Source: Salvelinus alpinus (lineage: Eukaryota > Chordata > Actinopteri > Salmoniformes > Salmonidae). Taken from it: DNA of 64,000 bases. How positions within the stretch are numbered: position 1 is the first letter of the stretch; the number at the start of each line of letters is the position of its first letter. The stretch lies in the NCBI RefSeq assembly GCF_045679555.1, contig NC_092092.1:12965690-13029689 (forward strand), given 5' to 3'. Positions 13,658-19,600 of the stretch are shown here, piece after piece. Below the pieces are notes generated by a model. It made no database searches. It was given only the letters and a program-made list of their open reading frames with translations, and was not told the origin of the DNA. A program made the translations under genes and the position numbers.

Positions 13658-16600
13658 GTATGGCTCTGTGTGTGTGTGTGTGTGTGTGTGTGTGTGTGTG
13701 TGTGTGTGTGTGTGTGTGTGTGTGTGTGTGTGTGTGTGTGTGTGTGTGTGTGTGTGTGTGTGTGTGTGTGTGTGTGTGTGTGTGTGTGTGTGTGTGTGTG
13801 TGTGTGTGTGTGTGTGTGTGTGTGTGTGTGTGTGTGATTCACGTATATCCATTTTATTCCAGGACTAACAACCTAGCCTTGAGTCTAGTGCTGCTGGTGG
13901 GATGCTACTCTGCTATCCTGGTCCCTGCTCTTATAACTTCAGACCCTCTGTTAGGGGCTAACGACAACCAACACACTGACATGGTACTGAACACACACAA
14001 AAGCACATGAATACATACAGTTGAGTCGGACATTTACATACACCTTAGCCAAATTCATTTTAACTCCGTTTTTCACAATTCCTGACATTTAATCCTAGTA
14101 AAAATTCCCTGTTTTAGGTCAGTTAGGATCACCACTTTATTTTAAGAATTTGAAATGTCAGAATTATAGTAGAGAGAGTCATTTATTTCAGCTTTTATTT
14201 CTTTCATTGCATTACCAGTGGGTCAGTAGTGTACATACACTCAATTAGTATTTGGTAGCATTGCCATTAAATTGATTAACGTGGGTCAAATGTTTGGGTA
14301 GCCTTCCACAAGCTTCAGACAATAAGTTGGGTGAATTTTGGTCCATTCCTCCTGACAGAGCTGGTGTAACTGAGTCAGGTTTGTAGGCCTCCTTGCTCAC
14401 ACACGCTTTTTCAGTTCTACCCACACATTTTCTATAGGATTGAGGTCAGGACTTTGTGATGGCCACTCCAATACCTTGACTTTGTTGTCTTTAAGCCATT
14501 TTGCCACAACTTTGGAAGTATGCTTGGTGTCATTGTCCATTTGGAAGATCCATTTGCGACCAAGCTTTAACTTCCTGACTGATGTCTTGAGATGTTGCTA
14601 CAATATATCCACATAATTTTCCTGCCTCATGATGCCATTTATTTTGTGAAGTGCACCAGTCCCTCCTGTAGCGAAGCACCACCACCACATGACGCTGCCA
14701 CCCCCGTGCTTCACGGTTGGGATGGTGTTTTCGGCTTGCATGCCTCCCCCTTTTTCCTCCAAACATAACGATGGCCATTATGGTCAAACAGTTCTATTTT
14801 TGTTTCATCAGACCAGAGGACATTTCTCCAAAAAGTACGATCTTTGTCCCCATGTGCAGTTGCAAACCGTAGTCTGTTTTTTATCTGACGGTTTTGGAGC
14901 AGTGGCTTCTTCCTTGCTGAGCGGCCTTTCAGGTTATGTCGATATAGGACTAATTTTACTGTGGATATAGATACTTTTGTACCTGTTTCCTCCAGCATCT
15001 TCACAAGGTCCTTTGCTGTTGTTCTGGGATTGATTTGCACTTTTTGCACCAAAGTACGCTCATCTCTAGGAGACAGAACGCGTCTCCTTCCTGAGCGGTA
15101 TGACGTCTGCATGTTTCCATGCTGTTTATACTTGTGTACTATTGTTTGTACAGTTGAACGTGGCACCTTCAGGCGTTTGGAAATTGTTCCCAAGGATGAA
15201 CCAGACTTGTGGAGGTCTACAATTGTTTTTCTGAGGTCTTGGCTGATATCTTTTGATTTTCCCATGATGTCAAAGAGGCACTGAGTTTGAAGGTAGGCCT
15301 TGAAATACATCCACAGGTACACCTCCAATTGACTCAAATTATGTCAATTAGCCTATCAGAAGCTTCTAATGCCATAACATAATTTTCTGGAATTTTCTAA
15401 GCTGTTTAAGGCACAGTCAACTTCGTGTATGTAAACTTCTGACTCACTGGAATTGTGATACAGTGAATTAAAAGTTAAATAATCTGACTTTAAACAATTG
15501 TTGCAAAAATTACTTGTGTCATGCACAAAGTAGATGTCCTAGCCGACTTGCCAAAACTATAGTTTGTTTACAAGAAATTTGTGGAGTGTTTGAAAAACGA
15601 GTTTTAATGACTGCAACCTAAGTGTATGTAAACTTCCGACTTCAACTATATATTTGGGTGCGTGTTGGGTGTATTAAACTGCTTTCTTGTGATGAACTGA
15701 TTTCTCTTACTCTAGTCTGTGCTGTAGGACTTATTAAACTCCCCTTCCCTCTCCTCTCCCCTCCAGGTCTTACTAAACTCCAAGTCCCTCTCCTCTCTCC
15801 TCCAGGTCATATTATACTCCCCGTCCCTCTCCTCTCTCCTCCAGGTCATACTATACTCCCCGTCCCTCTCCTCTCTCCTCCAGGTCATACTAAACTCCCC
15901 GTCCCTCTCCCCTCTCCCCTCTCCCCAGGTCATACTAAACTCCCCGTTCCTCTCCCCTCTCCTCCAGGTCATACTAAACTCCCCGTCTCTCTCCCCTCTC
16001 CCCTCTCCCCACTCCTCCAGGTCATACTAAACTCCCCGTTCCTCTCCCCTCTCCTCTCTCCTCTCTCCTCCAGGTCTTACTAAACTCCCCGTCCCTCTCC
16101 CCTCTCTCACCTCTCCTCTCTCCTCCAGGTCATACTAAACTCCCCGTCCCTCTCCCCTCTCCCCTCTCCCCAGGTCATACTAAACTCCCCGTCCCTCTCC
16201 CCTCTCCTCTCTCCTCCAGGTCATACTAAACTCCCCGTCTCTCTCCCCTCTCCCCTCTCCCCACTCCTCCAGGTCATACTAAACTCCCCGTCCCTCTCCC
16301 CTCTCCCCTCTCCTCTCTCCCTTCTCCCCAGGTCATACTAAACTCCCCGTCCCTCTCCCCTCTCCCTTCTCCCTTCTCCTCTCTCCTCCAGGTCATACTA
16401 AACTCCCCGTCCCTCTCCCCTCTCCCCTCTCCCCAGGTCATACTAAACTCCCCGTCCCTCTCCCCTCTCCTCTCTCCTCCAGGTCATACTAAACTCCCCG
16501 TCTCTCTCCCCTCTCCCCTCTCCTCTCTCCTCTCTCCTCCAGGTCTTACTAAACTCCCCGTCCCTCTCCTCTCTCCTCTCTCCTCTCTCCCCTCTCCTCT

Positions 16601-19600
16601 CTCCTCTCTCCTCCAGGTCTTACTAAACTCCCCGTCTCTCTCCCCTCTCCCCTCTCCCCTCTCCTCTCTCCCCTCTCCTCTCTCCTCCAGGTCATACTAT
16701 ACTCCCCGTCCCTCTCCCCTCTCCCCTCTCCTCTCTCCTCTCTCCTCCAGGTCATACTATACTCCCCGTCCCTCTCCCCTCTCCCCTCTCCTCTCTCCTC
16801 TCTCCTCCAGGTCTTACTAAACTCCCCGTCCCTCTCCTCTCTCCTCTCTCCTCTCTCCCCTCTCCTCTCTCCTCCAGGTCTTACTAAACTCCCCGTCTCT
16901 CTCCCCTCTCCTCTCTCCTCTCTCCTCCAGGTCTTACTAAACTCCCCGTCCCTCTCCTCTCTCCTCTCTCCTCTCTCCTCTCTCCCCTCTCCTCTCTCCT
17001 CTCTCCTCTCTCCTCTCTCCTCCAGGTCTTACTAAACTCCCCGTCCCTCTCCTCTCTCCTCTCTCCTCTCTCCCCTCTCCCCTCTCCTCTCTCCTCCAGG
17101 TCTTACTAAACTCCCCGTCCCTCTCCTCTCTCCTCTCTCCTCTCTCCCCTCTCCTCTCTCCTCTCTCCTCCAGGTCTTACTAAACTCCCCGTCTCTCTCC
17201 CCTCTCCCCTCTCCTCTCTCCTCCAGGTCTTACTAAACTCCCCGTCCCTCTCCCCTCTCCTCTCTCCTCTCTCCTCTCTCCCCTCTCCTCTCTCCTCTCT
17301 CCTCCAGGTCATACTAAACTCCCCGTCCCTCTCCTCTCTCCTCTCTCCTCTCTCCCCTCTCCCCTCTCCTCTCTCCTCCAGGTCTTACTAAACTCCCCGT
17401 CCCTCTCCCCTCTCCCCTCTCCCCTCTCCTCTCTCCTCCAGGTCTTACTAAACTCCCCGTCTCTCTCCCCTCTCCCCTCTCCTCTCTCCTCCAGGTCTTA
17501 CTAAACTCCCCGTCCCTCTCCCCCCTCTCCCCTCTCCTCTCTCCTCCAGGTCTTACTAAACTCCCCGTCCCTCTCCCCTCTCTCACCTCTCCTCTCTCCT
17601 CCAGGTCTTACTAAACTCCCCGTCTCTCTCCCCTCTCCCCTCTCCCCTCTCCTCTCTCCTCCAGGTCTTACTAAACTCCCCGTCCCTCTCCCCTCTCCCC
17701 TCTCCCCTCTCCTCTCTCCTCCAGGTCTTACTAAACTCCCCGTCCCTCTCCCCTCTCCCCTCTCCCCTCTCCCCTCTCCTCTCTCCTCCAGGTCTTACTA
17801 AACTCCCCGTCTCCCTCCCCTCTCCCCTCTCCCCTCTCCTCTCTCCTCCAGGTCTTACTAAACTCCCCGTCCCTCTCCCCTCTCTCCCCTCTCCTCTCTC
17901 CTCCAGGTCTTACTAAACTCCCCGTCTCTCTCCCCTCTCCCCTCTCCTCTCTCCTCCAGGTCTTACTAAACTCCCCGTCTCTCTCCTCTCTCCCCTCTCA
18001 CCTCTCCTCTCTCCTCCAGGTCTTACTAAACTCCCCGTCCCTCTCCTCTCTCCTCTCTCCTCTCTCCCCTCTCCTCTCTCCTCTCTCCTCCAGGTCTTAC
18101 TAAACTCCCCGTCCCTCTCCCCTCTCCTCTCTCCTCTCTCCCCTCTCCTCTCTCCTCTCTCCTCCAGGTCTTACTAAACTCCCCGTCTCTCTCCCCTCTC
18201 CCCTCTCCTCTCTCCTCCAGGTCATACTATACTCCCCGTCCCTCTCCCCTCTCCCCTCTCCTCTCTCCTCTCTCCTCCAGGTCATACTATACTCCCCGTC
18301 CCTCTCCCCTCTCCCCTCTCCTCTCTCCTCTCTCCTCCAGGTCATACTAAACTCCCCGTCCCTCTCCTCTCTCCTCTCTCCTCCAGGTCATACTATACTC
18401 CCCGTCCCTCTCCCCTCTCCCCTCTCCTCTCTCCTCTCTCCTCCAGGTCATACTAAACTCCCCGTCCCTCTCCCCTCTCCCCTCTCCCCTCTCCTCTCTC
18501 CTCTCTCCTCCAGGTCATACTATACTCCCCGTCCCTCTCCCCTCTCCCCTCTCCTCTCTCCTCTCTCCTCCAGGTCATACTAAACTCCCCGTCTCTCTCC
18601 CCTCTCCCCTCTCCTCTCTCCTCCAGGTCTTACTAAACTCCCCGTCCCTCTCCCCTCTCCCCTCTCCTCTCTCCTCTGTCCTCCAGGTCATACTAAACTC
18701 CCCGTCCCTCTCCCCTCTCCCCTCTCCTCTCTCCTCTCTCCTCCAGGTCTTACTAAACTCCCCGTCTCTCTCCCCTCTCCCCTCTCCCCTCTCCTCCAGG
18801 TCTTACTAAACTCCCCGTCTCTCTCCCCTCTCCCCTCTCCTCTCTCCTCCAGGTCTTACTATACTCCCCGTCCCTCTCCCCTCTCCCCTCTCCTCTCTCC
18901 TCTCTCCTCCAGGTCATACTAAACTCCCCGTCCCTCTCCCCTCTCCCCTCTCCTCTCTCCTCTCTCCTCCAGGTCTTACTAAACTCCCCGTCTCTCTCCC
19001 CTCTCCCCTCTCCTCTCTCCTCCAGGTCTTACTAAACTCCCCGTCCCTCTCCTCTCTCCTCTCTCCTCCAGGTCTTACTAAACCGCTCTGCCTCCCTGCT
19101 TGTGCAGCCCTGCCATCCAGGCTGGTGTGTGTCTCGTCTCCTGTCCTTGGACTCCTCCTCAGACCTCCAGGACACCCCTGTGTTCCTCCAGTCGGGGATT
19201 GCAGCAGACAGGCGTATTCCCTGGGACTTGGCCCCTCCCCTGGGCCTCCAGGGCTGTGACGAGAGCGTGGCTCGGGCCCTGGCCTCTCTAACTCATCCAG
19301 GCCTGCCCCCATCCCTGGAGGGGAGAGGTAGGGGTGGGGGCTGTAGGAGGTGTGTGGTGGTGGGCAGTGGAGGGGTGCTACATGGCAGCCACCTGGGATC
19401 CCATATTGACCAGTATGATGTCATCATCAGGTGAATGACCAATCAAACATACAATCAATGTAATTGTAAAAGAATTACATATTTTTAAATCAGATAATAT
19501 TTTCCATGACCCCCTACTGTACCACCTAAGTGATAGTCTGTTTCTGATATTATAACCAATCTCGTTTTTAGTTTTCCAGACTGCTAAAATAAATACATCA

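What the first reader, a model, noticed from the sequence alone, without database searches (positions are those of the whole stretch)
15729..19071. Intron 3 minisatellite is an array of about 58 decoy 3' splice sites copied from the real one
Each unit repeats the polypyrimidine tract, CAG and first 12 bases of the coding exon (GTCTTACTAAAC or GTCATACTAAAC), and the last unit is the genuine acceptor. Each unit also supplies a TACTAAA branch-point-like motif before the next pyrimidine tract. The spliceosome therefore faces dozens of near-identical 3' splice sites, of which only the last leads into the real exon. Every CAG is followed by GT, so units also resemble the AG|GT junction of recursive splice sites, although GTCTTA is a poor donor. 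The array appears to have grown leftwards from the exon boundary.
Basis: partly seen in the sequence, partly recalled or inferred. Interest (0 to 1): 0.87.

Follow-up and report, generated by a model that had tools for sequence, protein, structure and literature searches.

The report
Fish gene with 57 decoy splice sites
In a trout-family fish, the start of one exon of a sugar-transferring enzyme gene, together with its splice signal, has been copied in tandem so that dozens of near-identical false splice sites precede the true one, and a second exon end of the same gene has been copied the same way; this kind of repeat is known, but here it offers a natural test of how cells pick splice sites.

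Summary
Confirmed. Intron 13984-19071 of an intact 388-aa st3gal7 (GT29 sialyltransferase) gene ends in a 3.3-kb array: 57 full units plus a diverged edge unit, each a copy of pyrimidine tract + CAG + the first 12 bases of exon 19072-19430. A genome search found the unit only here. VLLN or ALLN is coded at this exon start in 84 of 120 listed orthologues, so the exon edge looks older than the array. None of 58 upstream array sites gives an open frame; 19071 does, as does 19107 inside the exon. New: exon 5 has the mirror image, at least 71 decoy donors copied from exon end + 5' splice site; only the innermost gives the protein. A char gene model contains array-encoded peptide. This is a 'mirage' minisatellite, described in amphioxus; trout irak3 (four copies) and human ABCA7 (donor side) are vertebrate precedents. 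Best mechanism: duplication of the boundary, expansion by unequal exchange, tolerated because exon definition favours the site beside the full exon. Recursive splicing is unlikely. RNA use, length polymorphism and genome-wide frequency could not be tested.

The parts
13536..13657 (+). st3gal7 coding exon 1 (ATG at 13536)
   Evidence: tblastn with orthologue P0003; joined CDS open, 388 aa
13863..13983 (+). st3gal7 coding exon 2 (hydrophobic stretch, probably the membrane anchor), donor ATG|GTACTG
15728..15766 (+). edge unit 0: TAG|GACTTATTAAAC + pyrimidines + CAG; 10 of 12 bases match the exon start
   Evidence: sequence; mismatch count
15767..19071 (+). 57 tandem copies of the 3' splice junction (GTCWTACTAWAC-type start + pyrimidine tract + CAG), 39-95 nt each; the last CAG is the genuine acceptor
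19072..19430 (+). st3gal7 coding exon 3, begins GTCTTACTAAAC = VLLN; genuine acceptor CAG ends at 19071
   Evidence: conserved in orthologues; GT29 domain
19105..19107 (+). alternative acceptor CAG, 36 nt inside exon 3, same phase; gives a 376-aa open frame
   Evidence: Salvelinus fontinalis model isoform X2 (P0074) joins DM to PCHP; frame test
19755..19941 (+). st3gal7 coding exon 4
23315..23455 (+). st3gal7 coding exon 5, genuine donor AAG|GTTGGT at 23456
23433..25915 (+). second array: about 74 copies of the last 23 bases of exon 5 + GTTAGTACT or GTTACTACTACT; 72 donor sites by strict pattern (1 genuine + 71 decoys), 74 by a looser one
26606..26755 (+). st3gal7 coding exon 6
26940..27026 (+). 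st3gal7 last coding exon with stop

Best explanation
A 'mirage' minisatellite. Step 1 (inferred): the old intron carried GACTTATTAAAC about 39 bases before the exon start GTCTTACTAAAC, a 10-of-12 match, or gained it by a first duplication; mispairing between the two copied the stretch between them, that is pyrimidine tract plus CAG plus 12 exon bases. Step 2 (product shown, process inferred): unequal exchange and slippage of 7-base CTCTCCY subunits expanded it to 57 copies of 39-95 nt. Step 3 (inferred): the gene still works because exon definition favours the site beside a full exon: only the last copy is followed by 359 nt of exon and a 5' splice site (19431), whereas each decoy has 12 exon bases and then another intron-like tract. 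Leakage from exon 2 to any decoy breaks the reading frame (shown by translation). The donor array at exon 5 is read the same way, with the innermost donor used. I think the arrays have no selected function; the likely cost is slower splicing or exon skipping that grows with array length.
For: Unit anatomy and identity; no other genome hit for either unit. Of 120 orthologues listed (339 passed the cut-off), 63 read VLLN and 21 ALLN by an automatic motif match (4 gave no match and a few of the other matches are off-target); two unnamed ORFs that seem to read through the boundary, P0008 and P0010, have Q directly before VLLN, and P0009 has Q before AVLN. 58 of 58 upstream array acceptors and 71 of 71 decoy donors break the frame, the innermost of each gives 388 aa; with exon 2 skipped, 0 of 59 array sites gives a full frame. 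Salmonid models P0073, P0075, P0077 and P0078 begin the exon-3 part at V(L/I)LN, and P0073-P0077 have QQQRK at the exon 5 end (exon edges inferred from protein). Duplicated beta-globin 3' splice sites with 14, 55 or 205 nt of exon spliced only to the distal site (PMC5389562, section 15). Amphioxus mirages are reported not to disturb regular splicing (PMC3087553, PMC3902484 passages).
Against: No RNA from this species was seen. Salvelinus sp. model P0076 skips exon 2 and reads array units into exon 3, which would be decoy use if real (an assembly or prediction artefact is possible). P0074 uses a site 36 nt downstream, so 19071 is not the only productive acceptor. 44 of 71 decoy donors pair with U1 slightly better than the true one, by 0.2-0.4 kcal/mol, so position must outweigh strength. 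In the beta-globin constructs splicing was very inefficient, and the distal choice did not depend on stub length of 14 to 205 nt, so the short-stub argument is weak and tolerance is not assured. Exon sequence shared with Amia shows an old exon edge; that the array is younger is inferred, since introns of other fish were not seen.
Confidence: 0.72

Rival explanations
1. The main acceptor is 19107 and GTCTTACTAAAC is only a branch site, so the array is a purely intronic branch site-pyrimidine-AG repeat.
For: TACTAAAC lies 26 nt before a good CAG in the same phase; that site gives a 376-aa open frame, and S. fontinalis isoform X2 (P0074, 376 aa) joins there.
Against: VLLN or ALLN is coded in 84 of 120 listed orthologues by motif match, Amia has LLN (P0012), and P0008 and P0010 read Q-VLLN. 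The site is therefore more likely an alternative.
Confidence: 0.07
2. Length-dependent splicing rheostat: the arrays titrate U2AF, U2 snRNP, U1 or PTB-type proteins and tune st3gal7 output, so that array length acts as a regulatory allele.
For: Two 3' splice sites can be occupied at once and concurrent occupancy inhibits splicing (PMC5389562 abstract). In human ABCA7 a donor-side array's length correlates with exon 19 skipping and lower expression (PMC5954066 passages). 120 CTCTCT and 135 TCTCTC words, overlapping, in the array. Salmo trutta model isoform X2 (P0078) lacks exactly exon 5, the exon with the donor array here; skipping it keeps the frame.
Against: No expression or allele data here; whether Salmo trutta has the array is unknown; in ABCA7 the use of a decoy unit (about 2%) did not change with array length.
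Confidence: 0.2
3. Recursive or ratchet splicing through the CAG|GT units.
For: The 57 decoys are all CAG|GT.
Against: U1 pairing -5.6 kcal/mol for each CAG|GT unit against -14.0 for the ideal site; units read GTCTTA or GTCATA, not GTRAGT.
Confidence: 0.03

Closest known systems
Amphioxus 'mirage' minisatellites (Adh3, globins BflGb6 and BflGb9, TnC; similar repeats in PGBD5)
   Same: Tandem repeats that span an intron/exon boundary, with AG or GT signals in many units, on acceptor or donor side; reported not to disturb regular mRNA (PMC3087553, PMC3902484 passages).
   Different: BflGb6 has 6 and 3 units in two haplotypes; here 57 acceptor decoys and at least 71 donor decoys in one vertebrate gene, and RNA was not examined.
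Rainbow trout irak3 intron 4
   Same: Salmonid; the first 15-17 nt of exon 5 repeated directly upstream of exon 5 (PMC6763605 passage).
   Different: Four repeats; no donor-side array in the passage seen.
Human ABCA7 intron 18 VNTR
   Same: The array's first GT is the exon 18 donor; canonical splicing uses the innermost donor; retention of one unit breaks the frame; alleles reach 9.7 kb (PMC5954066 passages).
   Different: Donor side only; 25-bp intronic unit, whereas the exon 5 unit here contains 23 exon bases.
Human 6-16/IFI6 donor minisatellite (Turri et al. 1995)
   Same: [quoted passage not shown] gene name recalled).
   Different: Donor side; paper not read.
Duplicated 3' splice site constructs (Reed and Maniatis 1986; PMC5389562)
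   Same: Tandem 3' splice sites, upstream copy with an exon stub (14, 55 or 205 nt there, 12 nt here).
   Different: Laboratory constructs with two sites; Reed and Maniatis seen only as a citation.

Membership tests
Mirage minisatellite | Tandem units span an exon/intron boundary | tested here: met
   Unit = intron end + 12 exon bases at 19072; exon 5 end + donor at 23456
Mirage minisatellite | Units carry splice signals | tested here: met
   58 of 58 units end CAG; 72 sites AGAGGNNG|GTT including the true donor
Mirage minisatellite | Normal mRNA still made | not testable with these tools
   No RNA; only gene models of relatives
Mirage minisatellite | Copy-number instability | not testable with these tools
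   One assembly; unit mixture (39 distinct of 58) is only suggestive
Recursive splice sites | Reconstituted 5' splice site close to GTRAGT after AG | tested here: not met
   GTCTTA or GTCATA, U1 -5.6 kcal/mol
New intron by boundary duplication | Intron position is new in this lineage | tested here: inconclusive
   Unnamed ORFs P0008 and P0010 show Q-VLLN, which suggests an old intron at this position, but their DNA was not seen
ST3GAL7, GT29 sialyltransferase | Glyco_transf_29 domain and closest relatives named ST3GAL7 | tested here: met
   PF00777 E 3.8e-34; named hits

The most novel reading that the evidence does not exclude
The decoy array and the coding exon evolve together: exchange between array and exon edge rewrites the enzyme's own sequence, and array length acts as a dial on st3gal7 splicing at two exons. 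Coregonus (P0075) alone, among the 116 of 120 listed orthologues that matched the motif, reads VILN, which is what the array's second unit type GTCATACTAAAC encodes, as if a decoy had become the exon start. A single independent T-to-A change would look the same, and the Coregonus DNA was not seen.
Probability: 0.22. Interest if true: 0.78.

Novelty: new member of a known kind. Interest (0 to 1): 0.58.

Why it matters
Splice-site choice among near-identical competitors is usually studied with engineered pairs. Here one vertebrate gene holds two natural competitions, 58 near-identical 3' sites and 72 or more 5' sites, in which only the innermost array site gives the full protein. Allele length differences between fish, if they exist, would make exon definition, first-come choice and factor titration separable in vivo. 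It is the largest acceptor-side case in the passages I read, has a donor-side partner in the same gene, and with trout irak3 suggests that salmonid genomes may hold more.

Tried and rejected
Acceptor at 19107 as the main site: rejected as the main site by orthologue conservation, kept as an alternative. Close paralogue as outgroup: none found in the genome; the next best protein matches are 51-52% identical over exon 4 only. GT29 paralogue loci: tandem arrays are common (19 TRF rows, some overlapping, in 119 kb, 23 loci that partly overlap) but none touches a matched paralogue exon. Search of predicted proteins with a 152-aa array translation: 107 candidates, none at E <= 0.001; uninformative, since full-length models such as P0076 fall outside its length limits. 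U2 pairing score: not discriminating. Genome-wide rate of boundary arrays by kinase or myosin exons: the search did not complete, so how common such arrays are in this genome is unknown. Original papers not held: 6-16 and amphioxus Adh (one search was a wrongly guessed DOI for it). Ten paper searches listed no paper that I recognised as describing this locus; the library is open-licence PMC only, and of the papers listed I opened eleven, by passages or sections, none whole. Opened but of little use: PMC2812944, PMC3045353, PMC12480690.
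Full report
What is there. TRF and direct reading find a pyrimidine-rich array (85% C+T over 15728-19071) that ends at the start of a coding exon. Each unit is a GTCWTACTAWAC-type start, TCCCCGTC in nearly all, a CTCTCCY-type tract, and CAG. There are 57 full units (15767-19071), one diverged edge unit (15728-15766), and the exon start itself as the 59th copy of the 12-mer. The unit pattern with up to 2 mismatches has 57 hits in the 2.37-Gb genome, all here and on the plus strand, with no hit for the control pattern; the tool warns that counts of repeats are lower bounds.

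The gene. Exons 13536-13657, 13863-13983, 19072-19430, 19755-19941, 23315-23455, 26606-26755 and 26940-27026 join to a 388-aa open frame. Exons 3 and 4 carry a GT29 domain and the closest named relatives are mostly called ST3GAL7. The passage seen in PMC10225777 says st3gal7 was lost in tetrapods. By protein similarity the window looks like a char (Salvelinus): it shares the exon-1 gaps of the S. fontinalis and Salvelinus sp. models; this is an inference.

Which came first. VLLN/ALLN at the exon start is widespread: 63 and 21 of 120 listed orthologues by motif match (4 gave no match, and a few of the other matched motifs are clearly off-target; 339 proteins passed the cut-off and only 120 were listed). 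Amia calva has LLN (P0012), and the unnamed ORFs P0008 and P0010, which seem to read through the boundary, have Q directly before VLLN. So the exon edge is old and the array is best read as its copy; introns of other fish were not seen. QQQRK at the exon 5 end is shared with Hucho, Coregonus and Salvelinus models.

Decoys. Of 58 upstream sites, 47 equal the true site from -15 to +3, 11 from -25 to +12 and none from -30 to +12. Joined to exon 2, 58 of 58 give a premature stop or frameshift; 19071 gives the enzyme. Joined to exon 1 with exon 2 skipped, 0 of 59 give a full frame. The site at 19107, inside the exon, gives a 376-aa frame. Distances from the branch-like A to the next AG are 29-85 nt. 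The U2 pairing score is not exceptional, so branch-point use is possible but unproved.

A second array, not part of the finding. Exon 5 ends ACACACAGCAACAGAGGAAG|GTTGGTACTACTGATACACACAGCAACAGAGGAAG|GTTACT. About 74 copies of the last 23 exon bases plus the donor follow to 25915: 72 donor sites by a strict pattern, 44 GTTAGT, 25 GTTACT, 2 GTTATT, and the true GTTGGT; a looser pattern finds 74. 44 of 71 decoys pair with U1 slightly more strongly than the true donor, -8.1 to -8.3 against -7.9 kcal/mol, and 27 more weakly. 71 of 71 break the frame. The unit pattern has 68 genome hits, all here. Of 13 exon edges tested, only these two have copies in the adjacent flank.

Relatives. P0076 (Salvelinus sp. 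IW2-2015) contains SYYTPRP...[13 protein letters not shown] directly before [20 protein letters not shown] is exactly what units 2 and 3 here encode. So array sequence adjoins exon 3 in that assembly, and the model appears to join exon 1 to it, omitting exon 2; model or assembly error is possible. P0074 (S. fontinalis X2) uses the 19107 site. P0078 (Salmo trutta X2) lacks exactly exon 5. P0075 (Coregonus) reads VILN, the only such case of the 116 that matched, which is the translation of the array's second unit type. These are models, not RNA that I saw.

Mechanism. Duplication of a boundary always leaves one array site that restores the protein: the last acceptor or the first donor. Exon definition would favour both, because only they flank the compact exon. 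Duplicated beta-globin 3' sites with 14, 55 or 205 nt of exon after the first were spliced only distally but very inefficiently, and simultaneous occupancy inhibits splicing (PMC5389562 abstract and section 15). So I expect mostly correct but possibly slowed splicing. In ABCA7 decoy use stayed near 2% and was not affected by array length, while skipping of the next exon rose with length (PMC5954066 passages); the same may hold here. Recursion is unlikely.

Known kind. Amphioxus 'mirages' (PMC3087553 and PMC3902484 passages), exon-edge repeats in trout irak3 (PMC6763605 passage), ABCA7, and the 6-16 donor minisatellite (title only). This locus is a new, large and two-sided member. How many other boundary arrays this genome holds is unknown, because the planned control search did not complete.

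Noticed in passing
23433-25915: Donor-side array at exon 5 of the same gene, at least 71 decoy donors copied from exon end + 5' splice site.
   Followed up: yes
21767-22389: 27-bp minisatellite, about 23 copies, in intron 4; units read TTTCAG|ACCA|GTATGT or TTTCAG|GCCA|GTATGT, an acceptor-like and donor-like pair 4 nt apart, not copied from an exon edge of this gene tested.
   Followed up: no
13667-13836: 85 TG repeats fill most of the 205-bp intron between coding exons 1 and 2.
   Followed up: no
14017-15650: Intron segment resembling a Tc1-mariner element with inverted ends (name recalled, not tested), just upstream of the array.
   Followed up: no
27759-35059 and 53217-64000: Very long minisatellites (43 bp x about 179; 41 bp x about 263) downstream of the gene.
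   Followed up: no
15728-19071, minus strand: 22 non-overlapping G-quadruplex motifs on the G-rich strand, none on the other; may bear on array instability.
   Followed up: partly
P0078 (Salmo trutta model isoform X2): Lacks exactly exon 5, the exon that carries the donor array in this genome; skipping it keeps the frame here.
   Followed up: partly
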